Part shown: piece by piece, positions 6,292 through 57,379 of the stretch
Layout: each line of letters opens with the position of its first letter
Numbering within the stretch: the first letter of the stretch is position 1
Assembly: GCF_040054535.1 (NCBI RefSeq)
Contig: NC_090794.1
Span: 1,983,501-2,047,500 of the forward strand
From: Antennarius striatus
Taxonomy: Eukaryota > Chordata > Actinopteri > Lophiiformes > Antennariidae
Direction of reading: 5' to 3'
Length of the DNA stretch: 64,000 bases
Program-made: the position numbers and the translations under genes
Notes under the pieces: generated by a model
Told to the model about the DNA's origin: nothing
What the model saw: only the letters and a program-made list of their open reading frames with translations
The model's database searches: none

Positions 6292-6375
6292 GACAGGAAC
6301 GCGGTAGAAGGAATCGCTGAGATGTTTCCTGTGCTCTCGCTCCCCACGCCACCGGCTGCTTGGCGTCTTCTGCTC
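6292..6375 (-). other. hpcal1: hpcal1 5' UTR part of first coding exon
   Basis: Minus-strand sequence from the ATG back to a CTGTAG acceptor (CTACAG at 6376-6381 on the + strand). The acceptor implies at least one upstream non-coding exon. The pyrimidine tract before it is weak, so this boundary is tentative. Confidence 0.45.
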
Positions 6376-19690: not shown

Positions 19691-19739
19691 TCATCTGAGT
19701 ACTCACCAACTGTAGGGAGAGAGCTCCAACAAACCCGTC

Positions 19740-25700: not shown

Positions 25701-28700
25701 ATCCTGACCCGAAGTTAAGAAGAATTTTTCCAAATATATTGTATTCTACCATTGCAGATGCCAACAAGGTTGAGGTTGAGTTCAAGTCTGATGTCAACGC
25801 AGACACCAAAGACTTGCCTTATTATGATGTGGCCGTACTGTATGGCAAAGCTCTCCTTGACTCTCAGTGGGGTGAGACTGAAATGCAGGTCCGTGATATC
25901 CTCATGAAACTTGTAGAGGTATGTCACTTGGATTTAATCAAATATTCAGATTTTCTGCAGTGAAACATCCTTAAAACTTTTAATTTCTTTTTTAGATAGC
26001 AAACACCTATGTAAAACTGCCTGAAATGTCAATTCCAGAGACCCTGTTTCTGCAGAGGTAAGTGTGAGGTTGATGATATGTTAACTTTATTCTAATTACA
26101 GTCACCGTTTCTTTTTGACCTTACTACTTATGTTTGATGTAAGGGGTCACGTTTTTGCAAAGTTTTTTTTGGGGGGGGGAACAAAATATCTACTGTACAT
26201 TTCAACAAAAAATAAGTCCCACTTTATTTAATTAACACTTCATTAACTTTTTTTTAACAGTGAGGCTAAGGCTGTCTACCTGTTCAACAACGAGCGCTTT
26301 ACCATCACTATCCCAATCCCTCTTGGAGGAAAGACAACGGAAGATCTTAACTTCCCACCTGCTTTAACCACACCTTACGTGTCTCTGCCCCAGTTGGGAC
26401 TGGAGATTGCTTCCTGGAAGATTCCAGTTCCTGAACTTGTTGTGCCTGAGAGTCTTACTTTGGCCATTCCTCTTGGCAAAGCTGAAATTTCAGCTCTGGT
26501 GAACACTAACCTGTACAACCTGAAGGCCTCAATGGCTGTTGGCAAAGATGTTGTTGAGGCACCAAGTTACTCGGCCAAGTTTGACGTGACAGGAACGTCT
26601 CCAATTGACATTCTGTCAGTGCAGATTGGAGGTATTCAAATTTTATTATTCAGGAAGTCATAATGTAAATTGCCTTTACCTTTTCTCATTCCCTGCGCAC
26701 TCAGGTTATATGTTTATGGAATTTTCAGTTATCAATCAATTTTATTTTTTTGGCTTATTTAGGGTCTGGACTGTTGGCCGCAGATGATTCCATCAAGGCT
26801 GAATGGAAAACCACTCTGGCCCATAAACTCATTTCTGCCAGTTTAAGCATTGCTGAAGACATAACAATGACAGACAGAGTCGGTTTGAAATCCATCAGCA
26901 AGATTGTAGTCAGAAGCCCGCTTGGCCTCATCGTTGAAGTGGACCATACTGGTATGGCTGGGGCCAACACTGAGGATATCTCTGTTGATAGCAACTTCCT
27001 TGGAAAGATCAAGGCTGGATCCATCTATGGCAACTTGGGTTCAACCCAGTCATTCATCATCTACCCATTCAGGCCAGAGGCAAAGATCGATTCAACTCTT
27101 TCTCTCGACTCCAGCATCCTTGCTGCCAGGAATGTAATCGCCGGTAGCCTTGTCAATGGTGAACTGTCAGTTGTGTCCAACACTAAAGTTAATGAAGATG
27201 TCTTGACCCATGTTGCTGAGCTTACTTTCAAAGAGAACAAGCTGTCGATGAAATGGGATGCCAATGCCCTTGGTTTTGGTATGAAGATTAACAACAAAGC
27301 TGATGCCTCTGTTGGTGCCGGCGCCATTCTCATGAGAATTGAAACAAGTACAGACAACAGCGAAAACAGAGTTTATTCTCTGCTGACCGCCTCTCTTGAT
27401 GGCGCTGGCCTGGCTGTAAATAGCGATGCCATTCTGAAGCTCCTTGAGAATGAAGTCAATCACAAGGCTACTCTGAAAATGGACAAGGATGGATTGGCCG
27501 TAAGTGGAAAGAACATCATCAAGAGCCCACTTGTCTTGGACAACACCTTCAGTGCTGGACTTGATGCTACAAGAGCTACTCTGTCCATTAGCAACAAGGG
27601 TGCATTCCGTGACTTCACAGTTGATAATGCCAACACATTGACCATTACTCTTGCTAGCCTTGACTTCAACTCAAAGGCTGATGTCACAGCAAGTGAATAT
27701 GCCTCTTACACTCATGTTATCACCGTTGATGTGAAACCTTACACTGCATCTGCAAATATTAACAACAACTTGAAGCTTCTTTCGGCTGAAATCATTAATG
27801 ATGCTCAGCTGCTGGCAGCGCTTTACAAGGTGGACTTAACTGGAAATCTAAAAGCCACTTATGGAAAGGAAGAGATCAAGCACACCTACCTGATAAGTTA
27901 TGCTGATTTGACTGCCAATGCAAAATGCGGCACCACTGGAAAAGTCTTAGGAACAAAAATGGACCAAAGCACAGAGATTGAAATCATTGGTCTTGCTGCC
28001 AGGATCACCAATAATGCTAACTTCAACTCACAACCAGTGCGCTTTAACCATGCCATCCTTTGCAGTATTGTGCCTTTCGACATTAATCTTGATGCTGTTT
28101 TCAATGCTGATGGAGACTTGACCTGGTATGGAGACCACCATGCCCAGCTCTATGGCAAGGCCCTACTTAAAGCACAGCCTCTGGCCTTTGCTAACTCACT
28201 TGAAGGCAGAGCTTCAGTCACCCAACAGCTAGCGAATGGGCTTTCCCTTAAAACCACATTTGACAGCAAGTTGGACTCTGTTCTGTCTCTTCAAGAGCAG
28301 AAGAGCACTCTCAGGCTGAGGTCTAAAGTAAATGAGCATGCTTTCAATCAGGACTTGAGTGTTTACAACACTCTTGAGAAAACTGGAATTGAGATGTCTG
28401 GCACCATCCTGACAAACATCCTCAACGGAGACTCCGCAGACAACCAGGAATTTGCTCTCTCTGGCTTTGTAAAGTATGACAAGAACACAGAAGGTCACTT
28501 GATTCAGCTCCCTTCCTTGGAAAATCTGCCCATCATCTTGGAAAGCATCAAGGACACCATTGTGCAAATTGCAGAGGTACTGAAAGATTACCTCAACAAT
28601 GAAGAGATGAGGGCTAGACTTCAGGCTCTTCCCCAGTATGTAAGTGACATTGTTTCTAAACTTAACATTGAAGGCAAGTTAATTTGGCTGAAGGACTATG

Positions 28701-31700
28701 TCAGTGATGTTACACAAAACCTAGTCATCTCTGCTGAGGATCTGAATGCCGCTTTGGCTAATCTGAGAGTTGCTGTCGAAAAGCTGTGGGCTGATCTCTC
28801 TGTTTACATCCGAAGCTTTGTTAAAATGGTGAAGGAGATTGTTCTTAGTGCCACGTTGCCTGACGCCCTCATTCAGAAGATCAAGCAACAGCTGATTGCA
28901 ATTGATGAGGCATTTGAAGTCAAGGCTACAGTTCTGTCTCTGATTGATACCCTCAAAACGTTTGTCCATGAGGCTAACTTAGAAAGGCTGGGAGGCACCA
29001 GCATCGAGTTCCTGTACCATTTGGATGTAAAGTATGATCTGAAGGGTTTACTGGAGGGAATCTTGACAGAAATGAAAAGGTTAATTGAGACCTTTGACAT
29101 ACAGAAATTTGTCACTGAGCTGAAAGAATTCATTTTATCTATTGAATGGATTCGCCTGTCCAGATGGATTCCCACAGAGTTTATCAGCAATTCAGCAGAT
29201 TACGTACTGGAAATGATTCAGGAGCTTGACATTGCAGGAAAGATCAATGCATTTGCTGCCAAGATGAGAGAGTGGATCGGGATGCTTGAGGTTAAAGATC
29301 TCTTGAAAAAAGCTGTGGAACTTGTCAGGCAGTTGAGGATTGAGGAAACCATCAGAACTGTGATGAAGATGGTGACGGAAGCAGATATTCCTACCAAGAT
29401 GATTCGAATCTTCCAGAATGCTATAGAATACTTGAAAACAACTGAGGTTACTGATATAATTCAACAGCTGAATTGGTATCTTGATGCTATGGTGACCAAT
29501 CTGAAGTCATGGGAATACAATGACTTTGTGGATTCTGCCAATCGCGTTATTACTAAGTACACAATCTATGTGAACGACCTGATCAAGTCTCTCAAAATCC
29601 AAGAGAAGATCGCAGCAGCAAGGGAATTGGTCAACACTGTCTTAGCCACCGGTAGAGGCATTGTGGAACGCCTGAGAGAAATGAAAGTTGCAGAGATCAT
29701 TAAATCTCTCAAGGATATTGCTAACCAGTTTGTGCTCGAGAACCTCAAGGTATTAGTTCGCTTCGTTCAAGAGAAAATCAGAGCTCTTGATGTCAATGCC
29801 ATGATCACCTCTGGTGTGGACACTGTGAAGGTATGGTACCAGCGTGCCATAAAGATTCCCAAAGTTATGATAACACTCGTGGTTGAGGTCTTTAACTTTG
29901 TGACTGAACAAGAAATCTTTACAGAGGTTCTGCAGATGATTGATGGACTTTATAACGCTCTCAAAACAGCTGAGTTGAAAACACCATCCTTCACTGTTCC
30001 TTTCACTGATCTCATCATGCCCTCAGTGACGCTCAACATGGACATGTTTGAAAAGTGGGAAATCCCGACACAGCTGGACATTCCTGAATTCACCATCATG
30101 GGTTCCCTCACCATTCCAGCCACCGCTCTTTCCATTGACAACATCAAGATGAAAATCATCGAGCTGATTGATTACATTGTCAACTGGGAAATCAAAATGT
30201 TTGATGTGGATGCTGTCTTTGGAGACTTGACTTTAAGCTTCCTTCCCTCCATGCCTGAGATAAGCTTGCCAGAAATTACTATTCCTGAGATCTCATTGCC
30301 TGTCATCCCACAAGTTCCTGTAGAAAAGCTTGTTAAGTCTCTTCCAGTTCCCGAGATCGAGCTGCCAACCATTGCACGTGGAATATTCCCATGCTTTGGT
30401 AACCTGAATGGGGAGGTCAAATTCCTCACACCATTCTACACCACCATGACAACTGTCGAGCTCCTGAACTCTACTAACAATGAAGTGTCACCTACATTCA
30501 TTGTATCTCTCAGTTCCCAGGCCACATGTCCTATTATTGACTTTCTTAATTACAAACTTGATGCCACCGCTCGCCTTGCAATCCCAAAAATGAGCCGTAT
30601 TGTCATTGCTGAATCTGGGGCGTTTGTACACAAACTGCTTGACATTCAACAACAGGGATCTCTAAGTATCTATGGGCTATCAGGTCAGGCTCAAACCAAG
30701 ACAACAATCAAGGTTTCCACCCTGCCTTACTCTGCTGAGTTTGTGAACAATGGCTTTATCGCTATGGAAGAAGGTATGTCTGCCTCTCTTGATGCATCTT
30801 ACGTGCATTTGGTTGACCTCCCAATGTTCGATATCAGAAATGAGGTCAACGTAAGCCACAAAGCCGTCGTTCGTCAAACTGGATTGGCTCTCACATTAAC
30901 AGTTGACAATTCTGGTCTTTTGAATGGTGATGGCAAACATGTGAGCCATCTATATTTGTCAGCCACTCCCAAGAGCGTCATTTTGACTTTCACTGGTGAC
31001 ACAGACTGTAGTGCCTTGAAGATGAAGCAGCAGATCACTGCTGAATCTGGAATCTTTTCCTTTTTAAAGTTTAACATCCGCAATGTGGTTGAGGCACCAC
31101 TTGTTAAGAACAGTCTGTTTTTGGCCTCTGGACATGCCAACCTGTACGATCTGAAGGTTGAGGTGAAAGCAAACCATGACGCAGAATTAATTGGTCCACT
31201 TAGTGGAGTAATGTCCAATGCAGTCGTTTTTGTAGTCCGTCCATTTGAGATTAACTTTGAATTCCAGAACAAAGGAAATGCTAAGATCAGCATTTTTGAA
31301 ACTCTGATGGCTAAGATGGATTTGCAGAATGATTACTTAGTCTTTGTCAAACCTGGTGCCCAGCAGATAAACACCATGCTTTTGGCTAATCTCAATCAGA
31401 ACAAGATGTTCTACAACTTCACTGTTGACAATAGTGAAAATGAGGCTGTTGTCCTTGTTGCCTCTGATGTTGTGGCCAATTTCGACTTCCTGACCTCCCC
31501 CATCAGCATTCCTGAGATCGATCTGCCTTTTGTTGACTTCCGTACCCCAGCTATCAGTGACCTCAACCTGTACGAGCAGACTGGATTGATGAATATTTTG
31601 ACTACCACTGAGCAGATTGTGAATGTGGATGGCAAGATTATTTATAAGAAATCCCAAGATGGACCCCTTATTGATTTGGGTCTCATTTGGATTCCCTCTC

Positions 31701-34430
31701 TGGGCAACGTGATCGCAGAGCTGTCCGTCAAGTCTCAAGTCATTAATCTGAATCTAAATGCTGGAGTCTCCACTGAGGATGATATTGTCTTCCGTTTGGC
31801 AGCTACAACAGTCTCTGTGTTTGAAGTTCTCAAAGCCAAGCTTGATGGCACCACCAGGCTGACCATGCAAAGAGGAATCAAGTTAGCTAATTCCTTGTCC
31901 CTTGAAAACAGTTGCATTGAAGGCACTCACGACAGCAGCATCATTGTGAACCCTGCCGCCCTTGAAGCTGCCATATCTATGAATTCTGTTGGAAAGATTG
32001 CTCTAACAATTCTCAACCTGCAAGTCAACCACAATCTGGTTGCCGACACCAAAACCAAAGCAAATGCTGTCTCCACCTTGAGGGTGAACGGTGATCTCAA
32101 CATCCCTCTCAGGGTCTTCGCAAAGGGTGACGCAGTCCACATTCTGAAGCTGGAAGGAAGCTTTTACGATGCTTCCATGGAGACATCCATCAAGGCAAAC
32201 ATGGATGGAAAGGTGCTTGAAGACTATTTACTTTTTGCAGTTGTGGACAACAGCTGGAATCTGTATCTGAACGGCGATGGCCTGCGCTCTACCTCTAAGA
32301 TTATTCTTGATGGCAAGATCGATGATGGCACTAACAAAATCCTTGGCATGGATGTCAACCAGAGTCTAGATGTCCAGGCCGACCTGAGCCGTGTGTATGC
32401 ACTGCTGAAGTTCAATGGTAACAATGAGGCAAACCTGTTCAATTTCAACACCAAAGGCAAACAACTTGTCCAGGCAACCATTGACGTGACTCCAATCTCC
32501 TCTTGGACTCATGATATCACAATTGATATTTCCCAACCAAGCGACATTGGGGACCTCTCTCTCTTTGCCAAGACTGTTGCCGATGTGTCTGCCGCCAAGC
32601 AGAAGATCTCTGCTGATGTCAAGTTGATCAGCCCTCTGTACACCACAAACCTTCTAGGTGGTCTGGATGGCATCGCTCCTGTTTACAAAGTCACCTTCAA
32701 GTCCTCTGCCACCTCCTTCATTGTGCTCCTCAACCATGACATTGATGGTGAGTTGATGAAATTCCAAATCCATCTCTATTTGTTTAAAGTCATGTGTCAT
32801 TGTTCAGCCCTAACTCTGTCGAAAATATTTTTTCACTAGCTTCTTCCACTATTAACGTGGAAAATGAAGTTCTGAACATCATCAACAAGATTGCGCTAGT
32901 GCATGCTGACTGTAACGTAGATGTCAACCACGTCTTCGCTCTAGGCTTGAGGTAACCTGTTTGATTTATTTTATATATTAAAGGATTTCTTCTTTTATTC
33001 TGTATTTAGTCTGAATATCTGTTTCTGTTGTGTTTTTTTAGTTGGGGGCCACTGCCTGATGACAGGTAAACATCAAATATTTCATCAGATTCCTTCGACA
33101 TTAAGCATCAAATGTGTGTTTTTCATTTGAAATGCGTTCTTTCTCTTCCAGTTCTCGCCACACTCTGAATGTGGACATCACCAGTCCCATTTTCACTGAT
33201 CTTAACCTGCGTTATGCTTCCAACAAAGATGCCATCAGCGCTTCAGTATCTGTTCCCACCGCAGGCTTTCTGGGCCTGAAGCTTATCGGCAGAGTCCCAT
33301 CCCAAATGAGTGCAAGACTCTACGGTCGTTACGCTGTGAGTCTCGTCACATCACCTACGCCTTCTTGACGCAACTGTAAAGAAAATTCTATATTGTCAAA
33401 TATAAAACAAAATTGACTTTCTTCTATTCAACAGTCTGCCCCGGATGTCGACGTTGATGTGCTGGCCATTAGATCATCTTCTAAGGGAGACGATAAGACC
33501 AGCCTGTTGGTAGCCTACAACATGGAGGTACCAAAGGAAATGCTGACAGCCTTGAAGACCAGACTTCCTTCAATCATCATTGCAGTCACAACGTTTGCTG
33601 ACAAGTACCAGATCATGAGCACCCTTGTGGACTTCAAGAACTTTGTGGTCAACAGAATCAGTGAGGCCTATAACGCAGCCATCAACTACGACTTCAAAAT
33701 GAGCCCACTGTCAGTCTTCTACAGGAGCGTCATTGTCCAGTACCAGAGGACCGTCCAGGTCTTCATTGATGCTGCCGTCAAGGTCTTGAGGGAGACTCAG
33801 TTCAAACTGCCTGGATCTGAAGAGATGACCACTCTCCCCGAGGTCCTGAAAAGGCTGACCAGCAGCATTGCTACTCTTCTGAAGTCGGTCATCCAGATTG
33901 TCTCTGATACTGTGGATATCTACTATAACATTTTCGTAGACAAAATTAGCAATGTGAAGCTGCGCATGCCAATTGGTGATGTAATCACTGGAAACCAGAT
34001 CCTTGAGCAGGTGAAAATGAGCTTAAGGGCCATCAGCGATGTCGTGGTGGACTTTGTGAATAGTATTGAGAGCCTTGACACCATGCTGGTGAAGATTGGC
34101 GAGACCTTCAAGGCTATTGTTGAGAAAACTCAGGTGTTCGTTGACTCCATCAAGTCTGACTACTTAGATGCCGTGTTCGAATGGGTTAATGCCCTCTACA
34201 TCAGAGTCATCACAGTCATATACAGTGTTGTTGACGCCGTCGCTGCCTTCAATGTGGAGCAGCTCAACAGTGCATTGGATTACATCATGGACTGGTGCAT
34301 TTACATCGTAGACCTGCTCAATACAACCGTTTATGGTGTTGTGCAGGAGGCTTCAGACGACGTTAAGGTCCTGATGAAAGTTAACGAAGGAAGGCTTGAA
34401 ATCGACCTTCCTTTTACTTTCCAACTGTGA
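19740..34430 (+). CDS. apob: Apolipoprotein B, tandem copy 1 (3,773 aa, 29 exons)
   Basis: Structural protein of lipoproteins secreted from liver and gut. Exons: 19740-19794, 19883-19915, 20037-20149, 20242-20387, 20477-20624, 20732-20884, 21055-21179, 21287-21372, 21459-21903, 22011-22125, 22367-22513, 22601-22812, 22907-23102, 23200-23376, 23490-23693, 23769-23936, 24017-24222, 24348-24530, 24608-24738, 24863-25073, 25158-25330, 25758-25918, 25996-26057, 26261-26631, 26763-32747, 32840-32951, 33042-33065, 33152-33335, 33435-34430. They total 11,322 nt, in frame throughout. A signal peptide ([12 protein letters not shown]...) is followed by the cysteine-rich vitellogenin/MTP-like lipid-transfer module (to about residue 1000), then amphipathic beta sheet, a helical block (about 1923-2550) and a second beta/helix region. 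Human apoB-100 has 4,563 residues. Exon 11 uses a GC donor (22514). Exon 27 is only 24 nt. The exon 18 acceptor follows an A-run. Probably apobb.1 or apobb.2 of teleost naming; which one is not decided here. Confidence 0.95.
28510..30390 (+). other. apob: apob copy 1 alpha2 amphipathic-helix block and proline-rich end
   Basis: Within the giant exon, residues about 1923-2550 have heptad-like patterns of Leu/Ile/Val with Lys/Glu and few prolines, matching the alpha2 domain of apoB. It ends in a run of PEI(S/T)(L/I)P units (about 30250-30372, residues 2503-2543) before a CFG motif. In copy 2 the same place is about 395 residues shorter. Confidence 0.75.
31634..31666 (+). other. apob: apob copy 1 segment matching LDL-receptor site A
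   Basis: The 11 residues [11 protein letters not shown] align with human site A, KAQYKKNKHRH. The first Lys and the YKK core remain; the downstream basic cluster is gone. Confidence 0.6.
31856..31882 (+). other. apob: apob copy 1 segment matching LDL-receptor site B
   Basis: Residues 3039-3047 read RLTMQRGIK against human RLTRKRGLK, inside a well conserved stretch (GTTRLT before, then LSL and EG after). Three of five basic residues are kept. Binding strength cannot be judged from sequence alone. Confidence 0.8.
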
Positions 34431-40150: not shown

Positions 40151-40240
40151 GCAAGCGGGGCGAGTCTTGAGAATTAGTCTTCACGGAAAGAGGAGGACTC
40201 TCCTTACGTCCAGGCTTCCAGGAGCTTTACTGATCCCATC

Positions 40241-43200
40241 ATGGGGGGTACCAAGCTCTGCCTTCTGCTGCTGTTAGGCACATACACACTAGCTCGTGAG
40301 TATCACTCAACTGAAAACCACAGTTAAATTATTGTCAATAGCATGGAAATCTATTTTTTGTGCTTTTTTTTTTTGCTTTTACTTGAAGAGTGTCTAAAAA
40401 TAAGTGATCATTGTAGAAACTTGCATTTTAGGTTATTGATCTCCATTCGTAACCAGCTAACATCTGACACTGATCTTTTAATGGAAAATATAACTCTAAA
40501 TAATGAGAAGAAATTAGAGTGAGAACACTAAAATTTCAGTCATAAAAAAATTTTTCATTTGGAGAAATCTGTTCCATAAAACACTATCAGGTCTTTAATT
40601 CTTTTTCATCATTCCAGTTGTTGCTCAAATTAGTTCAGGATTACACAAAACAGTGTTCTTGCTCATGAAGCAACTCGAACAAATTCCTGATCCTTGATTC
40701 AAATGTGCTCAGCGATGATTCAGTAAAATAAAAATGTCAACCAAACAATGACTTTCTTTCCCTACAGAGCAAGATGTGGGAAATGTCGACGAACAAGGTT
40801 GCTTATGTAAGTTGTGCTCAAATTTGACCATTGTTTTCTTTGTTCTGCACTTTATGCACAGACATCAATTGAATTTTTAAACCATTACCATTAGCGCTTT
40901 AACAGATGTGTGAAATACCTTTTAGTGGCCAAAAGATTCAAGAACTTCAGACGCTTTGTGTACGACTATCAAGCTGAATCCTTCAATGGCGTGAATACAC
41001 CAACAGACAACAAAAGCGGCCCCAAGATCTCCTGCAAAGTAGGTTTCAAACATGTAAACACAACAGTCTTGTGATTTCAAAGGAAAACAGCTGTGCTCAG
41101 CCATATTGAATTTGCTGCACAGGTAGAGGTTGAAGTTCCCCAGACCTGCAGCTTCGTCCTCCGCACTACAGAATGTTCTCTGAATGAGATCTCTGGTGTG
41201 GACAGGGAAGGAACCCTAGAGTACCGTCCCGCTGATGGAGCTATGGCTTTCAAGTCCGCCATGGCCAAGTAAGTCACCTTATCAGAGCAACAACTGAGTG
41301 CTCATCTTTAATTTCTCAGCTGTAAAATATGAAACCATGATTAGAAAGGTGGATTCAATAGTCTATGATCTGTCCGTGTCAAAAGGAACACCCTGAAGTT
41401 CACAGTGGAAGGACTGACGGATGTCAAAGTCTTCCCAGAGGATGATGAGCCCATCAACATCTTGAACATCAAGAGGGGAATCATCTCTGCCCTCATCGTG
41501 CCAGTTATGGAGGAGGAGAAGCGCAAAATGATGGTAGATATCGTGTTTTATTGTTTTTACAGCAATGACTGATCAATTGAGGTCATATAGCGAGCAGAGA
41601 TACCGAGCGGAGTCTGATTCTGTTTGTGACAGTCTCATGCAAAGATAAACAAGTTACACAATGAGCAGATAAGTTGGCTATCTGAGGCGCGGGTCGAAGT
41701 CCTAGATAAGTTTATCTCACTAACGACATCGCCCTCTGTCGTGATGGGGGGAATGATTCTTGCTGATCACTCGATAGTCAGATCCAGAGAGATTGCAATC
41801 GGACCAAAAAACATGTTTACCACACTTGAAGATGCTTCATCTTTGATAACCATGTCTTCGTTTCCAGGCCACCGTGCATGGAATTTGCCCCACCGACATC
41901 ACCATCAACACCAGGAAGGACATCGCCACCGATGTGACCGTCAACAGGGATCTTTCAGAATGCGACTCCTTTTTTGCTCACGAGCAGACCACCAGTCCCC
42001 TGGCCCTCATCACTGGCATGGTGAGGGGATTAAGAATCTGTTGCCATAATGACCGCCAACCAACACATTATCTACAGGGAGCAAAAATTTGATTTGTCTC
42101 TTCCAACAGAACCTCCCTCTGTCCACGATGATTAGCAGCACCCAGACCTGCAACTACAAGTTTGACAACCAGAAGAAGCACATGACCAGTGGAGTCTGCA
42201 TAGAGAAACACGTCTTCCAGCCCCTCAGCCAAAAGTGAGTTCTAAAGCAATCTTAATTGTCTTCACCAATCCGATTAGAGATTTAAATATAACTTACCTC
42301 CACCTCCAGGAATGAATATGGAATTGCCACAATGGTGAAGCAGACTGTGACTCTGAGGGACACCGCCAAGATCAACGACAGAGTCTTTGACCGCAGTTAG
42401 TACTTTTATAATAACTTCTAAAACTTCAAATGTGTTCAGTATGTCACATGTCAGCTTTTCCTCACCTCCTGTGCTGAAATCTACGCAGATGAGGACAACC
42501 TCAAGTTCTTGCCCATGGAGGTTGCTGATGACAAGTCCCCTGTGCAGACCCAGGACGCTGCCCTGAACATTTTGAAGGAGATGAACAACCTGGAGCAGTC
42601 CATAGACAAGGAGCGGCGCCCTGCCCTCTTCCACAAGCTGGTGTCCGAGCTGCGTGGCCTGAAAGCCGACGTCTTGGGATCGGCCTTGACTGACATGATG
42701 GTCGAGTCGACCCCTCTGACATGGCAGGCTCTATTTCAGTGCGGCACCCCAGAGTGCACCAGTGCCATGCTGACGTACCTCAGGACCTTCGATAGATCAG
42801 CCATGGAGGTAGATGCAACGGTCTATGCATTGGGAATGCTGCCTAACCCCTCCCGCCTCATGGTCAAAGACATGCTGGCTATGGCTCAGTTCAAGCAGAG
42901 CAAGCCCATCATGTATGCTCTGAGCAACGTAGCTAGGAAGTGAGTAAAGGACTATTTCATGTTTTATAATTTGACAAACGTAGCAATGATTGTTGTTGTC
43001 TTTAAGACACTAATGTCAAACTTTGTCTCTAGGCTGTACCAGGCTGAAGGCGTCACCCCAGAGATTATGGCTGTCTATGACTTCATTTCTACCCTCCTGG
43101 GTGCAGACTGTGCTGGCGAGAAAGAGCTCACCTTCCTGACCTTGAGGGTAGGTAACCAGCAGTGCAAGTAGACCGTTTACAAAACTGGAAGTTTCTCAGG

Positions 43201-46200
43201 GAGCTCATACCTCTGCCCAGCGCTGTCACTAAAATAGCAGCAACTGGAAAATCTTTCACACAGGCAAAATTTGCAAGAGTGAATCAACTATTCCTTGAGC
43301 CGAGATCCATCCTCTTATTTTTCTATTGCAGGTTATTGGCAATATGGGAAAAGCAATGGAGGCTGCTGACCCTACTATAAAGACCACCCTGCTGAAATGC
43401 ATGAGACAGCCTGTAACCACACTGTCTGTGCAGCTGGCTGCCATCCAGGCTTTCAGGCGCATGAGTGTGACAGATGAGGTGACCAACAAACGACTATACG
43501 GACAAGCAACGTCTTTGTTTCCTTGTTCTTTAGTGAGGAGTTTCCCAAACAGAGTGACAACAAGCTAATTTTTTTTTAAACATCCAGGTCCGCTCCAACC
43601 TTCAGAGGGTCTGCCAGTATTCCAAGGGCGCAGTCCAGAAGCGCCTGGCAGCTTATCTATTGCTGATGAAGGATCCCCAGGACAGTGACATCGAGATGGT
43701 GAAGAAGATCTATAAGCAGGAGCAGAACGTCCAGGTCAAGTCCTTCGTGACCTCCCACATCTTCAACATCGTTTCCTCCCCTGACGAAGATAGCCAGAAG
43801 TAAGACCAGACCAACTGACACATTTATCCTTCTTTTCATTAAAATACTGCCAAAATTCAACAATTAAACTGCTTGCAATCACCTAATTCTTCTCCGTAAT
43901 CGCCCCAGGCTTGCTAGGAGGCTAGTGGATTCCATTGGCATTGACGCACTCATGTACAACTTTGATGCCACTAAGTCTCGCAGCTACAAGTTGGACATGT
44001 CACAAGGGAACTCAGTGCTTGACGTTCACGGCAACGTTATCTTTGATCCCAGCAGCCAGCTGCCAAGGGAGGTCATGCTGGAAAGCACCCTAAAAATTTT
44101 TGGTTTCAGTATGGATATTTGGGAGGTATGTAATACAGTAGTTCCATGTACTTTACTGTTCATTCAAATTCACGAGTTGATATCATTGTTCTGACTTCTT
44201 TATAAACCTATCCATCCAAAGTTAAATAATAATTTTAGAGGAGTTATTGGAATCTGTTTTATTTTTTCCGATAGTTTGGAATGCAAGGAAAGGGCTTTGA
44301 GCCAACCGTTGAGGCTCTGTTCGGAAAGAACGGATTCTTCCCTGACACACTGTCCAAAACTCTTTACTGGACTGTGGACAAGATCCCACAGCTGGATAAC
44401 TGGGTTACCCCTTCTCAATCAGAAGGAAGAAAGGTATATCCACATGTCACTGCTATTACCCTTAATATGCTTTGTCTGAATAATCATATCATTTCCACAT
44501 ACACTAAAATAAACTTGACATCTTTTCCTGTCAGATTCCCGAAAATCTTGGGAAAGAAATTCTTCGTAACTTCAACAAACTGATGAAAGATCTACAGAGT
44601 CAGGAGTTCCCAGAGGCCATGGCCTACCTGAGGATCAAGGGAGAGGAACTGGGCTATATGAAAGGCAGTGAAGTGAAGTCTGTTCTCGAGAATGTAATGA
44701 TGTTTGCAGAAAAATTCTCAATGCTCATTCCCAGACAGGTACCTTTCTGTGCTCCTGTTATCCATTTATTGTTTCACGCAACTTACATGTCATTTACTTG
44801 ACTGCAGAGTTTTAAAAATTGTTCTTTTTTGGTTCCAGGTTATGGCTAAGCTGATGTCTGGCACTGACAATGACATCTTTGCCCATTACATCTTCATGGA
44901 CAACAAATTTGTCATGCCAACAGCATCTGGATTGCCCCTGACATTTGCTCTGTCAGGTACCTTTACTCCTGGTGCAAGGGGTGGTTTTAAAATCTCCCCC
45001 AAAACGGTATGTTTTCTATTTTCCAATCGCAACTCAGTTATAATTGTTCATAAAATTTCACCTGGTTTTTTTTTTGACTCTTGCTATTTTATGGAAAAAC
45101 CTAATTAAGTGTCCTTGAGAGCATTGAGAAAACCCATAATAATAATCAAGTTGTAGTAGTTCTTATTGTTGTAGATCGTCACTGTGTGGTTGAGTACGAC
45201 TGATTTATATCATCCATATTTCGTTCACAGAAGGAACTCATGTTCATGCCCTCTCTTGGAGTTGAGTTTCTGACTCAGATGGGAGTCCACCTCCCTGAGT
45301 TTGTCTCTTCCACTGTAGAGATGCACACCAACATGTACCACGACAGCATCCTCAACGCCAAGATCACCATGGAACAGAACCAGCTCAAGCTTTCCATCCC
45401 CAACCCACAAACCCTTGCTAAGTTTGCCATCAGGTACAATAAGACAAAATATTCATGTAATATATTTTAATTGGTTTGATTATGTTGCAAAAATATAGTA
45501 GAAGAGTGCTCAATCAATAGAGGAAAATTTTCCTGCAGAGGCAGAAACATATCCTTCATTTAATGGGATTTTGATTTTGGCATGTTTAAAAAAATATAGA
45601 GGCGAGAACTAATTCTGTTGATTTCTGTTTGAAATAGCAACAAAGTGCAGATTATGGCCGCGGGTCATGAAGTAAGGAGCGCACTCCTGCATCACGACAG
45701 GAAATGCTCCCCTGTCTACTCTACAATCAATTTCTGCTCTGACAGAACTTATGGCAAAATGGGAGATGATTCATTCTTCCCCATGACTGGAAAGGGGAGG
45801 TAAGTTGTTTTATCTGTAATTGTTGTGTCTAATTGCAAAACACATTGTACAATATCAATAGTTCTGATCATTGATCTTTTCACCCAAGGTACTTTGTGCA
45901 AATCCAGCCACCATCACACATCTCTGAATATACAGCTACCATCTCCTACAACCTCCTCAGCGAAGGAAAGGATGGTCGTCAGAAGGTTGATTCCTTGAAG
46001 CTGGCCCTGAGAACAGAGAGTACGAACGTCTTCTTCAGAACAAAAAAAGATACACCATAACCTTGTTACGTTGATAACCAAACTACTTGTCTTCGTTGTT
46101 GGATTTAGGTGCTCAGCCCTCGGAGGCTACAGTCACCATGAAATACAACAGGAACAGGAATATTTTCACTACCCAAATCCAGATACCTGATTTTAATGTT

Positions 46201-49200
46201 GAGTCTGGCATTAAGATTGGCATGACCGACAGCAGCACCAAAGGAAAAGCCATTACTCTTGAGTTGTCTGACAACAATGTACCTCAACTCTCTCTCATCG
46301 GCCGTGCCAAGTGAGTCAACACTGTCTTTAATCACACTTATAAAAAGTAGTATATTTGACCTAAAGCTATTTATTTAACTGACTTCTAAATTTCTGGTAC
46401 GCAAGCATTTATAAATAATGTTTTATCATTCACAGGGTTCAGGGAATGTCTGATGGCATGCTGCAGCTGCAGATGTTAGTCCCCTCATTGGAATCTGACG
46501 CTGCTATCACCGCAACCATGACCAAAGACGACGGACTCACAATGGAACTCAAGAGCGATGTCAAGTTCAGAGAGACCTTCTCTAATAAGGCAGTCACAAT
46601 CAAATATAGTAAGTGTTGTTTAACCAAATGGTGCTCATGTATTTCGGTAATTGATGAATTCAAACATTTGTAGTAACAGTCCTGATGTAAATCACGTCTT
46701 CCTTTGTGCATCAGATGAGAAAGAGGCTGAGGTTCAACTGGTATCCAAGACAAACGTTGACACTCGTATCCTGGAGCCATACTTTGCCCTCGTCCGCTTC
46801 TACGTCATGCACTTCACAGAGTTGGCCATGGACCAGCAGGTTGTCAACACTGACATGAAACTGCGTCATATCTTCAACAAGGCAGTTGAGGTGAAATGGA
46901 TTTGCTCATTGCAGCTGTTTTTGCAGATTCTGACTTCTGGATTTGCAGACTAAAACTGGAGAAATGTGTTGTTGTTTTTTATCACCAGGCCAGCAATATC
47001 TGGATAGAAAAGATATCAAATGATGTTCCGTACGTTGACAGACTGAGATACATGATGAATGATGTGGAAATGCCTGAAAACTTATTCATGAACTTGTAAG
47101 TACTTTAAAAAAAAGAGAACAGTTTGTCACCAGTTGAGTGTGAATTGTACATGTCAATTAAAAACACATCTCGCTGTCACCCTTCCACCAGTGAAAGCTC
47201 AATCAAGTACCATTTCAACAAGAACCAAATGACCTTCACTGTTCCTCTGCCTTATGGAGGCAAATCATCTGAGGAACTAAGAATACCTCGAATGATCACT
47301 TCCCCAGAGATCTCCATGCCTCAACTGGGCATGGAGTTCACCTCAAATGAGATTGAAATCCCTACCTTTACCGTTCCTCGTGAGTATGATGTCACCCTGC
47401 CTCTGATGGGAAGGATGGAAGCGTCTGCCAAGGTCAACAGCAACTATTATAACTGGGAAGCAACAGTATCCGCTGGTAACAACACTGAGGATGCTCCAAG
47501 CTATATGGCTAAGTTCAACATGCTAGCTGACAGTCCAATCAAGCTTCTCTGCTTCTCCACTATTGGTAATTAAATCTTAATGGTTTTTATCAATCAGATT
47601 AATAATACGATTGTTGAGTTGACATTTTTTGCTCTTATTAATGTTGCTCTGCGTTGTCTGTTACTTAGGCACAATGGAAGTCGCTGACACAGAAGAGGAG
47701 TTGATGACATTGACCGTTGACGGTTCCCTGAACCACATGCTCATGAAGACAAATTTCAATTATATGGAAACTTTGGCATTCACCGATGATGTGAAGTCGA
47801 CAGCAAAGTACAATCTGTATGCCTTTACCCCCATGGGTTTGGAGACTTCTCTGACTGCCACTGCCCAGCTTGTTCTAGATTCAAACACGCTCTCTGGAGA
47901 TCTTAATGCAGATGGAAGTTTGACTGTTGGATCCATGACTGGTACCACCACATATCTCCACACTTACTCTTTTGAGCCACTGAAGAGAGAAGCAAGATTG
48001 GAAAGCACACTGAGGGTAAACTCAGAAATCTTGAAGTTTGGAAGCAAGACCAAGGCATCATATGCCAATGAGGAGCTTTTGATTGACTCAAACACCAACA
48101 TGAACATGGAACCCATCAAGCATACCACCAAAATGGCCCTGAATTACAATGGTCGCAAACTGACCATGCATTCTGAATCGGTGACCAAGGCTGATGAGAG
48201 CATGCTCCGTAGCATGATGGACTTCTCTTCCACTGGTGGACAGGCTAACCTCAGGATAGAGCATCAAGCTGATGACACAGTGAACCGTGGTTCCTCTGTG
48301 TTCGTTGCTTCCATGAACCCTACCAGCTTGGAGATCAATACAGATGCCTCCTTGAACATCTTCTCAAGCATTGCTTCCAACAAGGCCACCTTGTCCCTCA
48401 ATGTGAATGGCCTCACCACCAGCTGTACAACCACTGCTCAGCACAGCCAAATGACCTTAGAGAACATTTTTCATGGTGGCGTTGATACCTCTGGTGCAAC
48501 CATGTCTCTCACTACTAAGGGAGCCATTGAAGAGAACAAAGCTGAGCTCACTGTTGATGGCAAACTTGCAACCACAGAAGTGTATCTCAACGGCATCTTA
48601 AAGGGCAACCTTTTTGACATGAACACCCGAAACAGAGTGAACCTCAGGCTAAATGAAGATGGCTTGGTCTTCTCCAATGGCATTGTTGGATCTCTCAATG
48701 AGATGAGGACCGAAAACACTAACTCACTGTCTCTTACACTGAAGTCTTTTATCCTCCACTCCAAGACCGACAATGTCCTTAACGAGAAGAACTCCTACAT
48801 GCATGATGTCACTGTTACCGTGAAGGATTTTACTGCCTCAGTCATTGTAAAAAATGGCCTAAAAATCATGGAAGTTAACTTTGTGAATGATGCCCAATTC
48901 AAATTGCAGCCTTACAACATGGAGCTGACTGGAACCACAATGGGAAGTTGTTCAAAGGAAGAGCTGAAGCACACCTATGAAGTCAAATTTGTCAACATGG
49001 TTCTGTCTGCAAAATGCAATACCAACGGTATCCTCCTGGGAACTCAGATGACACATGCAACTGATATGGAGGTTGATGGCTTGAACATTAAGTTTAACAA
49101 CATGGCTAATTTCAACTCAGCGGATCTTCATCTGGACAGCAAAGTAAAGATTGTTGCTGCTCCTTTTACTCTGGACGTCGATGCTCTTTTCAAGTCAGAT

Positions 49201-52200
49201 GGTACACTGTATCTGTACGGACAACAGACTGGTGATGTATACAGCAAATTTCTCCTGAAAGCAGAACCCTTGATGATCACAAACTCATTTGAGTGCAGAG
49301 CCTCAACCACCCATGAGCTGGAAGACGGTTCTCTCAAGACCAATATGGACAGCAAGTTCAACAGCCTGCTGAGCCTCCAGGAGCAAAGCATTATGCTGAA
49401 GATGTCATCCAAGGTAGATGAGCATACTTTTGATCAAGATATGAGTGCCTATAACAATGAAGATAGAATTGGTATTGAGATGAGAACAGCTGCCTCAACC
49501 TCACTCTTCAGTGATGAAAGCGAAGATTATGAAATCTCTGGATTTGTGAAATATGACAAGAACAGTGACAGCTACCACATCGAGGTCCCATTCATTGAGT
49601 ATCTGCCTGAAGTTATTGAAAATGTGAAAATTACAATGATGAGGTTGATGGACAGTACCATTGAGACACTGAATGACATTGACATGAAGTATGAGATCAG
49701 TGGCACATTCAAGAACAAAGTATCAGAACTGAAGGAAGTCATTGACAACTTTGACTTCAACAACTTTGTCCTAGACCTGAAAGACTATATGAGATCAGTG
49801 GAAGAGTTTGTTTTCAAGCTGGCAGCCAAGTTCCCAACTGAAGAAGTCATTGACATGTTGAGATCAGTGATAGATGCTATTATGACTTGGATCAAAGAGT
49901 ATGGCATTGCTCAAAAGTACAATGCAATTTATGACAAATTAGAGGATTTCCTCTCCAGCTATGAAGTTGAGAACATGATTGGGGCCATCATGGATGAAAT
50001 TGTTAAACTTATGAAGCAGTTCCGTGTGAGGGAAAGGATTCAATCTATAGTTGCCGGTCTCAGATCAATTGACATCCAGCCTCTGATCAAAAAAGTGATG
50101 GCCCCCATTGAGGAGGTTGTTAATGAACTGTACTCTTTTGATTATGAACAACTGGTTGAAGGCATGAGCAATTATTTCATGAGAATTTTGCAGAAAATCC
50201 GATCTTTTGATTATGACACATTCACTATGGAGTTGAAAGAAAAAGTGGCAGATATGAACAAGATTCCCTGTTTTGGAAAACTCTACGGAGAGTTCAAAAT
50301 TACATCGCCTCATTACAAGCTCACTACCACCGCTGACATGGAGAACACAACAACTTCAAGGGACACACCAGAGCTCACGATGAACTTTAAGTCACAGGCT
50401 GTATCTACTTTGAAAGTCCTTGAGTTCACCGTGGATAGCAGTGCCCATTTGGAAACACCTGAGATGAGAATTATATCCCTCTCTGAGAACATTAAAATTG
50501 ATCATTCATGTTTCACACTTAACCACAAAGGAACAATGTCTCTGGACTCGGATCTGTTAGCTCAAGGTTCTGGTGAAACTACCGCTACTGCCAAAACTGA
50601 GAGTTACATTGCAGATCTGGTCAATAATGTATCATTTCGCATGGATTCAGGACTTTCTGCCAATGTCGATGCCACAAACACATTGAAACAGAATGTCAAT
50701 ATACCAACTCTTGATATTTTCAGTGAAACAACAATGAATCAAAAGGCTGTTTTCCTTCTTGAAGACGGTACTGCCCATCTGACCATTAATAATCTGGCCA
50801 ATGGAAAATATGCAGTTCAGGATTCCTCAGATGAGGAAAGCTATCAGAGTGACTTTGACATGGTAATGGATCTGCACACAACTAAAGTGACTTTCAACAG
50901 TAAAACAGACAGCACCAACCTCAAAATGAAAGAACATGTTGTTGTGGACATTTGCATTTTCCGCCATATTATTGTAGATGCCAAGGTTGAGACAGACGCA
51001 GCGATGATGAAGAACAGTGTTGCAGAGCTGAAGTTCCAAGCTAAGACTGAAGAATTGAAAATTGATTTCTCTGCCTCTCACAAGGCAGATTTTGTTGGAC
51101 CTGTTGAGGGACCTGTCTTAAACTATGTAGCTACTTCAGTCAAACCTGGTGATTTCGTGTTTGACACCAAGAACAAGGCAAATGTCAAGGTTGCCCTTCC
51201 ATTCACCCTGTATGGAAAAATTGATCTACAGAATGACATCTTGGTCACCCTGAACTCTGAGGTGCAGCAAGCTGTCTTCACAGGTTTGGCAAGATACAAC
51301 CAGTTTAAGTATTCCCATTTAATCACCGTGGACAATAATGATAGAGAAATAATCTTAGCTACCCAAATTAATGGAGAGGCAAATCTGGATGTCCTGATGG
51401 ACCGTGTCACTATTCCTGAAATGACTATGCCATTTTTCGGTACAAAGACGCGAAGAATCGATGACATTTCATTGTGGGAAGACACTGGCTTGAGCGAACT
51501 CCTGATCACAACTCAGCAGACACTTGACATGAACTACAAGTTGAAATACATGAAGAACCCAAAAATGATCACCATTGACATTGATATGGAACCACTTATT
51601 AATGCTATTAATACCAACTTCAAGACTATGCACAAGAATATGCTCATCAGAAAGGATGAGGCTGTTTCCATGATGACCAACTCTTTTGATACAGCAAAGG
51701 CAGAATTTTACAAAAATAACAAGATGCCCAAAACAGTCACGGTCCCTGCCTACAAAGTCCCAGTGTTGAATATAGAGATGTCTACGTTCACTATTCCCCT
51801 GCCTGATTTCGGTGCCATCGAACTGCCTTACATTTATGTCCCCGCTGCCCTTCACAAGCTCACCCTTCCAAAGATCACTCTGCCCAAAATTAGAACCATC
51901 ATGATCCCAGTAATGGGTGATCTGACTAGTGAGCTCACAATGAAAACAGCAATGCTCACATTCAAAACTGACACCAGCATCCTCAACCAGGACAACTTCG
52001 TCATCAAATTTGATGCCTCTACAACCTCTGAACGCAAGTTTCTCAATGGAAAGATTGAGGGAAACATCAACTTGGACACAGAGGACGGTTTTGAAATGAC
52101 ATCTCTTCTGTCTGTAAAACATGCCTTGTTCGAGGGAAAACACGACGGCACCATCACTGCAGGTGATAAAAATGTTGCTGTCTCTATCACCAACTCAGCA

Positions 52201-53583
52201 CAGCATAGGATATACAGAAGGAGTACGGAGGTAGTCCAACAAATCAAAGGAAATCCAGAGGACGGGCTCCTCGTGTCGTTGTACTCTCCATCTACAGGAT
52301 TCCTTGGATTTGAGATGCAGACTAAGCATCCAGCACAAGTGAAAGGAAGACTCTATGGTCGCTTTGTGGTAAGAGAACTTTTGCTCACTCTTCTTTGATA
52401 GCAATTTTAATATAAATTATGTATTTATAGTTTACTAAAATGTATTTCTGTCATTTTTACCCTTTCCCAGTCTGAGCCAAATACTGATGTTGACATCTTA
52501 GCTGTAAAGATGTCTGTGAAGAACTCTGAGAAGCTCAACATTCAGACAACCTGGAACATGGAGATTATTAATGAAGCTATGCTGCAAACAAAGAAAGTAG
52601 CACCCAAAGTTGCAGAATATGCCTTTATTCCTGTTATTGTAACATTTGATGTAATTCATAGAAATGCTAGATACATTGAGAATTCTGTTATGTGGGCTAG
52701 AAACCAGGGTGAAGTGATGTTAGCTTCAACTTTTGACCATGCCGCAGCAGTACAACCTTCCGAGTTGGTGAAAACTCTCACAGATTCCTCCATTGCAATC
52801 TTAAAAGAATACCAAAAGACGGTTGAGATTGTTTTTGATGCCGTTGTTACTTTCCTGAGAGAGACCAAGTTCCAGATCCCTGGTTACGAACGTAAACTGT
52901 CTGGGCTTGAGGTCTACCAGAAGTTCAGTGCCTTCGTTGCCGACTTTTCTGAGGAGGTTATTCAAAAGATTCCAATGTACTTTTCCTCCATGTTTTCAGA
53001 AGTCATTGATTATTTCAGTTCCTTGGAATTCGTCCTCCCTGGCTCTGATTACATCCTAAGCGGAAGAGAAATTCTTGATGACTTGTTTGACACTTTGAAG
53101 GAAATTCAGCACAAAGTGATTGCAAATGTGAGAAAACTGGGTGACATCCAGCTGGAAGATATCCTTGACAAGCTCTCAGAATTCACACAGTATATTGTAG
53201 AGAAGAATGAGATTTTCCTTCAAACCCTAAGATCTGCGAATCTAGAGAGATTGAATACCTTTACGAATGAACTTTACAATGATATCGTCAACTCCCCCTT
53301 CGTGGAGGATGTCATGAAACAGGTTGACGAGATCTCAAGAATTATTAGAAAATATGTGAGAGATCTGTCAAGGAAACTTGATTACATGGTACCTCGACCT
53401 AGCCAGCTTGAAAAAGAAATCCAGTCCAGGTTTGACTTCATGGTGAAAAGTCTAAATACTTTCCAAAACGATGTCATGACAACACTTAAAAACCAAACCA
53501 AACAATTTGAACCATATCTGAAAGTAGAAGACAGACAGGTGGAAGTGGAGATCCCTTTACCTTTTGTAGCAAGATTTAACTAA
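40241..53583 (+). CDS. apob: Apolipoprotein B, tandem copy 2 (3,292 aa, 26 exons)
   Basis: Second lipoprotein scaffold gene, same orientation. Exons: 40241-40295, 40768-40806, 40926-41038, 41123-41268, 41386-41533, 41868-42020, 42110-42234, 42310-42395, 42489-42939, 43033-43147, 43332-43478, 43588-43799, 43909-44125, 44275-44433, 44535-44738, 44839-45006, 45231-45433, 45638-45799, 45889-46019, 46109-46310, 46436-46608, 46715-46890, 46989-47095, 47192-47565, 47669-52368, 52471-53583. They total 9,879 nt with no frame break and GT-AG introns. Signal peptide [12 protein letters not shown] and the lipid-transfer module are intact. Fourteen of the first 24 exons equal copy 1 in length. The giant exon runs directly into sequence matching copy 1 exon 28 (GRLYGRF), so three introns and about 330 codons are missing. 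The helical block is short and site B is acidic. Intact splice sites and frame argue against a pseudogene. Confidence 0.95.
49570..50275 (+). other. apob: apob copy 2 shortened alpha2 helix block
   Basis: Residues about 1990-2223 are amphipathic helical sequence leading directly to the [12 protein letters not shown] motif. Copy 1 has about 630 residues in the same interval, so most of the block and the PEIxLP run are absent here. Confidence 0.75.
51538..51570 (+). other. apob: apob copy 2 segment matching LDL-receptor site A
   Basis: [11 protein letters not shown] aligns with human KAQYKKNKHRH. Four lysines remain but the contiguous basic cluster is broken up. Confidence 0.55.
52069..52095 (+). 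other. apob: apob copy 2 segment at the LDL-receptor site B position, acidic
   Basis: Residues 2823-2831 read NLDTEDGFE, aligned without gaps to copy 1 RLTMQRGIK through the flanking Leu, Gly, L-S and EG-x-HD anchors. No basic residue remains and four acidic ones are present. Confidence 0.75.
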
Positions 53584-56666: not shown

Positions 56667-57257
56667 TCACATCAAAACGCAGCAATCGGCGCAGTTCCCC
56701 GATGGCGTTTTCCGTTTCTGCAAGGCCGCCCGTGTGGCCGTCTCGAATACCTCCCAGATGCCCTCCTTGGTCTTGGCCGAACACTCCAGGTAGTCGTAGG
56801 CGCCGATGCGCATGGCCATGGCGCGGCCGTCCTCCGTCTTCACGGGCTCCAGCTTCAGCCGGGACAGCTCGTTCTTCACGTTCTCGTCGTTGCGCAGGTC
56901 CTTCTTGTTGGCCACTAATATAATGGGCACGTTCGGACAAAAATGTTTCACTTCGGGGACCCACTTCTCCGGGATGTTCTCCAACGAATCCGGGCTGTCC
57001 ACGGAGAAGCACATGAGAATGACGTCCGTGTCCGGGTAGGAGAGGGGCCGCAGGCGGTCGTAGTCCTCCTGTCCGGCCGTGTCCCATAAGGCCAGCTGAA
57101 CCTGCTTGTTGTCCACCTCTATGTCCGCCACGTACGTCTCGAACACCGTGGGGACGTACACCTCCGGAAACTCGTCTTTGCTGAAGAGAATCAGGAGACA
57201 CGTCTTCCCACACGCACCGTCCCCGACCACCACCAGTTTTTTGCGTATGTCCGTCAT
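56667..57257 (-). CDS. rhob: Rho-family small GTPase, RhoB
   Basis: GTP-switch protein of actin regulation and endosomal traffic. A single uninterrupted frame of 196 codons, the usual RhoA/B/C length; intronlessness and the neighbour pum2 point to RHOB. Seen: P-loop GDGACGKT (12-19), switch [12 protein letters not shown] with Gln63, VANKKDL and SAKTKEG nucleotide motifs, all intact. The tail NCADCC-VLM has cysteines before the CAAX cysteine, as in palmitoylated RhoB. Oddities: Thr at position 41 in the effector loop (FETY), where RhoA, B and C have Asn, and CAAX box CVLM with Met last instead of Leu. It could be a lineage-specific RhoA/B-like paralogue, but synteny favours rhob. Confidence 0.93.
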
Positions 57258-57379
57258 TTTCGCCTTATTTCCGAGCTCTACTTACTGTTAAACATACAAA
57301 ACATTTAACGTGGAGCCTCCCGCTGCTCTTGATCTCTAAAAAGAGACGCGCTGGAAAAGCCGCTCCCTTCTTCCGATTC

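What the first reader, a model, noticed from the sequence alone, without database searches (positions are those of the whole stretch)
52069..52095. LDL-receptor site B turned acidic in apob copy 2
At the position of the main receptor-binding motif (human RLTRKRGLK), copy 1 has RLTMQRGIK and copy 2 has NLDTEDGFE. The alignment is ungapped and anchored on both sides. Net charge at the site goes from about +5 (human) to +3 (copy 1) to -4 (copy 2). Copy 2 particles are then unlikely to be cleared through classical site B binding, which suggests the two copies may make lipoproteins with different fates in the same fish. The charge change is seen; the functional split is inferred.
Basis: partly seen in the sequence, partly recalled or inferred. 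Interest (0 to 1): 0.8.

Follow-up and report, generated by a model that had tools for sequence, protein, structure and literature searches.

The report
ApoB copy with reversed receptor-site charge
This fish carries at least three genes for apolipoprotein B, the backbone protein of LDL-type fat particles, and in one of them the patch that grips the LDL receptor has switched from positive to negative charge while the other two keep it positive, so the fish may make fat particles that the usual receptor cannot catch by that patch.

Summary
Window 52069-52095 encodes NLDTEDGFE (net -4), aligned without gaps to human apoB site B (RLTRKRGLK, +5) and copy 1 (RLTMQRGIK, +3); this register ranks first of 441 offsets on the human segment and of 2,018 on copy 1. 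The genome holds at least one more apoB gene, on contig C17, with site B SLTKKRGIK, +4. Copies 1 and 2 are sisters (94% bootstrap), so a basic site was most simply lost on the copy 2 branch. Over 2,521 columns shared by the three fish copies, site B is copy 2's largest negative charge shift (-7.5; next separate window -4.0); 21 of 5,000 column shuffles and 5 of 1,000 simulations reach it anywhere. Copy 2 also lacks the segment with the human R3500 position but keeps a basic site A. The stretches checked are free of stops. Copy 2 has very probably lost site B receptor and proteoglycan binding; different particle fates remain inference. No other fish sequence was within reach, so a change confined to this species is not excluded. 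A zebrafish paper calls the LDL-receptor binding domain of ApoB well conserved.

The parts
52069..52095 (+). copy 2, position of LDL-receptor site [10 protein letters not shown], net -4
31856..31882 (+). copy 1, site [10 protein letters not shown], net +3
47669..52368 (+). copy 2 large coding exon (equivalent of human exon 26 fused to the end of exon 28); start and end are predicted splice sites
   Evidence: open frame; predicted acceptor and donor; human homology
26763..32747 (+). copy 1 large coding exon; start predicted, end read from the DNA (donor GTGAGT)
52230..52300 (+). approximate junction in copy 2 where the site B region meets exon-28-like sequence; the intervening segment with the human R3500 equivalent and two introns is missing
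   Evidence: 33225-33338 matches 52258-52371; homology to human runs out near here; the corresponding copy 1 exons are separate
51538..51564 (+). copy 2, site A equivalent: KLKYMKNPK, net +4, one of two 9-mers at +4 in the exon
52207..52221 (+). copy 2, basic cluster RIYRR, 46 residues after the start of the acidic motif; candidate replacement contact
40223..53565 (+). copy 2 gene, extent of the stretches homologous to copy 1
19722..34421 (+). copy 1 gene, extent of the stretches homologous to copy 2

Best explanation
The window holds two tandem apoB genes of a fish, both open in the stretches checked. Shown: compared with human R3359, R3362, K3363, R3364 and K3367, copy 2 has N, T, E, D, E, plus D at T3361; it keeps the Leu at position 2, the Gly at position 7 and a hydrophobic residue at position 8; and it lacks the segment that holds the human R3500 equivalent. 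Copy 1 and a third gene on another contig keep site B basic. Inferred: on the copy 2 branch the site was turned acidic while the backbone was kept. Because LDL-receptor ligand modules and glycosaminoglycans are acidic and bind basic patches (established knowledge), copy 2 particles are not captured through site B by either. They would then be cleared by other routes (apoE, other basic patches of copy 2) or stay longer in circulation, which would divide labour between the copies. Loss of site B binding: likely. A selected division of labour: possible, not shown.
For: Register and ungapped homology. Third paralogue basic. Tree ((copy1,copy2) 94, C17, human) on 840 columns; alternatives AU p 0.008 and 0.056. 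Of 34 columns basic in human and C17, copy 2 is basic in 20, neutral in 11, acidic in 3, and all 3 are in site B, which holds 4 of the 34 (hypergeometric 0.0007); copy 1: 23, 11, 0. Of 23 columns basic in human, C17 and copy 1, copy 2 is acidic at 2, both in site B; with the other sequences as target, 0 of 27 (human), 0 of 21 (C17), 0 of 20 (copy 1). Largest negative shift among the fish copies: -7.5, next separate window -4.0; reached by 21 of 5000 shuffles and 5 of 1000 simulations on a tree whose branch lengths I set by hand close to those. Simulated from basic 9-mers under LG+G4, net -4 or lower in at most 1 of 20000 at 0.67 substitutions per site and at most 0.41% at 3.0. Site identity: human-copy 1 6/9 (flanks 36/97), human-C17 6/9 (43/97), human-copy 2 2/9 (26/97). 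R3500 position: Arg in copy 1, segment absent from copy 2. No stop in 16 of 16 copy 2 stretches used; open frame of 1591 codons around the site.
Against: A single change in human apoB is reported to harm proteoglycan binding severely without affecting LDL-receptor binding (title seen in a reference list), so charge alone does not predict receptor loss. Copy 2 keeps a +4 site A and has a new RIYRR cluster after site B. With only C17 and copy 1 as reference, over all 16 stretches, copy 2 has 8 basic-to-acidic changes in 119 columns, of which only 2 are in site B; copy 1 has 4 of 120 and C17 4 of 124, so reversals occur elsewhere. The opposite reversal also occurs: of columns acidic in the other three, 2 of 36 are basic in human, 1 of 29 in C17, 0 of 24 in copy 1, 1 of 23 in copy 2. 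A human window elsewhere shifts by +5.67 against the three fish copies. The C17 copy too has no Arg at the aligned R3500 column. No expression, binding or clearance data. No orthologue from another fish.
Confidence: 0.72

Rival explanations
1. Relaxed constraint only (a rival on the cause, not on the loss): copy 2 no longer needs site B, the basic residues drifted away, and the acidic outcome is chance in an acidic protein.
For: Copy 2's site B is no better conserved than its flanks (33rd percentile of 98 windows against human). Copy 2's large exon is net acidic (-3.8 per 100 residues; copy 1 -2.7) and 26 of its 1561 9-mers reach -4. The adjoining segment is missing. The zebrafish minor paralogue apoBb.2 is scarce (0.6% and 2.4% of larval ApoB protein) and said, as data not shown, to carry numerous deletions (passages of PMC4348566): a possible but unproven parallel.
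Against: All 3 reversals at positions basic in human and C17 fall in site B; the shift is the largest negative one of the aligned columns; in simulation net -4 stays rare even at 3 substitutions per site. These models ignore local composition, so this is not decisive.
Confidence: 0.4
2. Receptor binding was moved, not lost: site A (KLKYMKNPK) and/or the new RIYRR cluster serve as the receptor or heparan sulphate contact of copy 2.
For: Site A at +4 and RIYRR, 46 residues after the start of the motif, are present in copy 2.
Against: By recall, human site A is not needed for LDL-receptor binding. No tested register puts the new cluster at site B.
Confidence: 0.15
3. The apparent site B of copy 2 is really another internal repeat of apoB (near the end of exon 26), brought next to the upstream part by the deletion.
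For: apoB has internally similar stretches (weak extra matches) and a junction lies about 55 residues downstream; I held this view first.
Against: The stretch at human 3849-3929 scores 1.3 bits against 70.5 for site B; the homologous register ranks first on all three references; homology with human continues about 55 residues past the motif.
Confidence: 0.02
4. Sequencing or assembly error at the 27 bases.
For: Reads were not available.
Against: In frame, no long homopolymer, differences spread over most codons, flanks and internal Leu and Gly intact.
Confidence: 0.02

Closest known systems
Human apoB100 site B (3359-3369 of the mature protein, 3386-3396 of the precursor), main LDL-receptor and proteoglycan site
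   Same: Same position in an ungapped block; Leu 2, Gly 7 and a hydrophobic residue at 8 kept
   Different: No basic residue of the motif is kept; net -4 instead of +5; R3500 segment missing
Engineered human proteoglycan-binding-defective LDL (single change in site B; K3363E by recall)
   Same: Copy 2 has Glu at the position of K3363
   Different: Copy 2 has lost the other four basic residues too; a natural paralogue, not an engineered allele
Familial defective apoB-100 (R3500Q = R3527Q)
   Same: Impaired receptor binding through the same region of apoB (passages of PMC5792649)
   Different: A point allele of the single human gene; here a whole segment is absent from one of at least three paralogues
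Zebrafish apoBb.1 / apoBb.2 / apoBa
   Same: Three genes; one a local duplicate with deletions (passages); the LDL-receptor binding domain is called well conserved in zebrafish ApoB (passages)
   Different: Orthology of copy 2 to apoBb.2 was not established (inconclusive); I saw no site B sequence of any zebrafish paralogue
ApoB48
   Same: Mammalian apoB particle without site B (passages of PMC12183174), cleared by other ligands (general knowledge)
   Different: ApoB48 is a C-terminal truncation of one gene's product; copy 2 is a separate gene that keeps a C-terminal exon

Membership tests
Apolipoprotein B | N-terminal lipid-transfer (Vitellogenin_N) domain | tested here: met
   PF01347 in one N-terminal exon of copy 2, E 1.2e-08, 34.5 bits, above the cut-off of 24; the copy 1 exon is below it at 21.7 bits, though it matches human apoB 307-450 at 69.8 bits
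Apolipoprotein B | Large exon homologous to the human beta belt | tested here: met
   copy 2 against human 1416-2010 255.5 bits, 2749-3152 168.3 bits, 3274-3450 70.5 bits; Pfam gave no family for this exon of either copy
Apolipoprotein B | Multi-exon gene with stretches in the same order in both copies | tested here: met
   homologous stretches collinear from first to last. Predicted intron phases agree at 21 of the 21 junctions predicted in both copies, but the exon list was coarse: 15-16 was not resolved in either copy, 22-23 not in copy 1 and spurious in copy 2, some predicted sites are weak, and a few junctions skip an exon seen
Apolipoprotein B | C-terminal exon related to human apoB | tested here: inconclusive
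   the last exons of the two copies match each other but gave no human apoB match in a single-sequence search
LDL-receptor site B bearing apoB | Basic cluster at the site B position | tested here: not met
   copy 2 NLDTEDGFE, net -4, against +5 (human), +4 (C17), +3 (copy 1)
LDL-receptor site B bearing apoB | Segment with the R3500 equivalent | tested here: not met
   absent from copy 2, Arg present in copy 1; no Arg at that column in C17
LDL-receptor site B bearing apoB | Receptor and proteoglycan binding of the particle | not testable with these tools
   needs a binding assay
Zebrafish-type apoBb.1/apoBb.2 tandem pair | Orthology of copy 1 to apoBb.1 and copy 2 to apoBb.2 | tested here: inconclusive
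   translations of primers taken from PMC8410079 do not separate the copies: apoBb.1 forward 6/7 copy 1, 5/7 copy 2; reverse 5/8 copy 1, 6/8 copy 2; apoBb.2 primers match neither well

The most novel reading that the evidence does not exclude
Fish of this lineage run two lines of apoB lipoproteins with opposite receptor addresses: copy 1 (and perhaps the C17 copy) for LDL-receptor clearance, and copy 2 as a selected, receptor- and proteoglycan-blind carrier whose acidic hairpin is itself a new docking surface for a basic partner such as a lipase or another receptor.
Probability: 0.2. Interest if true: 0.8.

Novelty: new variant of a known kind. Interest (0 to 1): 0.58.

Why it matters
Site B is a textbook receptor-binding patch of LDL, and apoB variants that impair receptor binding raise cholesterol in people. 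A natural apoB paralogue with the patch reversed, in an animal that also keeps basic versions, would be a natural experiment separating particle assembly from receptor clearance and from matrix retention. It can be tested in fish where apoB particles can be tagged. I found no report of it: five searches of the open-access library, for the motif, apoB paralogues in fish and receptor binding of fish apoB, showed none in the titles and abstract starts listed, nor in the passages I saw of nine papers. Supplements and subscription papers were not searched, so this is weak evidence of novelty.

Tried and rejected
Internal-repeat hypothesis: I first suspected that the acidic motif belonged to a later internal repeat of apoB; one search gives that 1.3 bits, and reject it.

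Orthology by zebrafish primers: inconclusive. Structure prediction of the copy 2 segment with copy 1 as the only relative: mean pLDDT 37, not used; no fold search was run. The last exons of both copies gave no human apoB match, so human sites in the C-terminus could not be mapped. The 2025 apoB-LDL receptor structure papers and the 1998 site B paper are not held; I used no contact list from them. A search for K3363E papers found none, one for R3527 with cryo-EM terms none. Branch-site selection tests were not run: the copies are too diverged (about 0.67 substitutions per site on the copy 2 branch) and no orthologues were at hand. Whether this fish has an LDL receptor or apoE was not looked for.

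Limits of the counts: the 840-column set covers 3 stretches, those for which human letters were printed; gapped columns were dropped. The fish set covers 16 stretches with a three-way match, gapped columns dropped; other exons were left out. One search gave 2,524 columns because two copy 2 stretches were set a few codons too long and took in one stop each; one search trimmed these and gave 2,521 columns without stops. The -4.0 runner-up, the 119/120/124 counts and the positions are, the shuffles and simulations. At least three apoB genes: this rests on one N-terminal exon (3 matches) and the site B region, and the tool calls such counts lower bounds; a search with the copy 2 region did not complete.

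Full report
What was checked. The stretch 52069-52095 reads NLDTEDGFE in a frame open over 1591 codons. Searched against the sequences of solved structures, the surrounding 300 residues match human apoB-100 at E 4e-34, the next match being at 0.27, and site B falls inside a stretch aligned at 70.5 bits. Copy 1 does the same at 136 bits. A block of 106 residues is compared ungapped in all three. I had suspected a mix-up with a later internal repeat; that alignment scores 1.3 bits.

The whole genome adds a third copy. The window lies at C19:1983501-2047500 of a 548 Mb assembly. A search with copy 1's site B region finds a further apoB large exon on C17, and an N-terminal exon finds 3 places: copy 1, copy 2 and C17 (a lower bound). 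In the fetched C17 region there are matches to many exons of the other two, but not to the first five stretches (copy 1 19722-20911), so its 5' end is not mapped. Its site B reads SLTKKRGIK, net +4. On 840 gap-free columns the tree groups copy 1 with copy 2 (94% of 200 bootstraps); of the two alternatives one is excluded (AU p 0.008) and one only marginally disfavoured (0.056). In any of these trees human, C17 and copy 1 are basic, so loss on the copy 2 branch is the simplest history.

How unusual is it. An acidic 9-mer by itself is not very rare in copy 2: 26 of 1561 9-mers of its large exon are at -4 or lower. The comparison with the paralogues is what stands out. Of 34 columns that are basic in human and C17, copy 2 is basic in 20, neutral in 11 and acidic in 3, and all 3 acidic ones lie in site B, which supplies 4 of the 34; copy 1 is acidic in 0 of 34. 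With 16 stretches and only the fish copies, copy 2 is acidic in 8 of 119 columns basic in the other two, 2 of them in site B, while copy 1 is acidic in 4 of 120 and C17 in 4 of 124; this wider count is weaker. The charge of a nine-column window in copy 2 minus the mean of the other two falls to -7.5 at site B; the next separate windows are at -4.0. Shuffling columns reaches -7.5 somewhere in 21 of 5000 trials; simulated evolution, on a three-branch tree with lengths set by hand near those, in 5 of 1000. With human included, copy 2's shift at site B is -8.0, the largest negative one of 832 windows; against that, human itself has a window at +5.67 elsewhere. The site had been named beforehand by its function in human apoB. 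Starting from basic 9-mers, simulated evolution gives net -4 or lower in at most 1 of 20000 cases at the branch's own length and at most 0.41% at 3 substitutions per site. The simulations ignore local composition and selection, so they argue against plain drift without excluding it.

Anatomy around the site. Copy 2 keeps Leu at position 2, Gly at position 7 and a hydrophobic residue at 8, as in the other three sequences; this would fit a kept strand-turn-strand with changed solvent residues, but the structure model was too poor to show it. About 55 residues after the motif, homology with human stops and copy 2 continues with sequence that in copy 1 belongs to a separate exon (33225-33338 matches 52258-52371). 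The simplest reading is one in-frame genomic deletion from inside the large exon to inside the exon equivalent to human exon 28 (exon numbers by recall), removing two introns and the segment that holds the human R3500 equivalent. Copy 1 has Arg at that column; C17 does not. Copy 1 in turn lacks the segment between sites A and B that human, C17 and copy 2 have, in whole or in part. Copy 2 keeps a basic site [10 protein letters not shown], +4, and has a basic cluster, RIYRR, 46 residues after the start of the motif, where human, C17 and copy 1 have none. No stop lies in 16 of 16 homologous stretches of copy 2. Intron phases agree at 21 of 21 junctions predicted in both copies, but several predicted sites are weak and the coarse exon list skips some exons, so this is only supportive.

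What it most likely means. Site B binds the LDL receptor and proteoglycans, the latter by ionic contact of Lys and Arg with acidic sugars (passages of PMC8540246). A variant in site B and the R3500 change are linked with inherited high cholesterol (passages of PMC5792649). With no basic residue left and three acidic ones in their place, copy 2 very probably does not bind through this site. Caution: a paper title reports a single apoB change that spoils proteoglycan binding but not receptor binding (reference list of PMC12183174), so the receptor part is less certain than the proteoglycan part. In zebrafish the LDL-receptor binding domain of ApoB is called well conserved and apoBb.1 makes up about 95% of larval apoB (passages of PMC6668417), and apoBb.2 is described as the shortest paralogue, with numerous deletions, data not shown (passages of PMC4348566). 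Copy 2 may be its counterpart, but the test made here was inconclusive. Whether copy 2 particles live longer, go elsewhere or are cleared by apoE is open. If the frame change in the C17 gene is real, copy 1 would be the only one of the three copies found to make a protein with a basic site B.

Verdict. Confirmed observation, partly supported interpretation. New variant of a known kind: an apoB paralogue with a reversed receptor site beside basic paralogues. The largest gap is the absence of other fish: nothing here shows that the acidic site is conserved.

Noticed in passing
G000 contig C17, 6134334-6183244 (minus strand): A third, dispersed apoB gene. Its large exon changes reading frame near 6142092-6142120, about 735 residues before site B: either an assembly error or a real lesion that would cut the protein short of site B.
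   Followed up: partly
window 52230-52371 against 32747-33335: Copy 2 has lost two introns and the coding segment between them, apparently by one in-frame genomic deletion.
   Followed up: partly
window about 31640-31700: Copy 1 lacks the segment between sites A and B (roughly human 3182-3322) that human, C17 and copy 2 keep at least in part, so the two tandem copies have complementary deletions around the receptor region.
   Followed up: partly
window 33420-34430 and 52462-53583: The last exons of both copies match each other but gave no match to human apoB in a single-sequence search of solved structures.
   Followed up: no
window 56667-57281 (minus), 5887-6375 (minus), 545-1039 (plus): Neighbours with Ras-family GTPase, EF-hand and thioredoxin domains; the names rhob, hpcal1 and pdia6 are recalled guesses.
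   Followed up: partly
window 51469-52194 (minus): An open frame of 241 codons runs antisense to the site B region; probably a by-product of codon usage.
   Followed up: no
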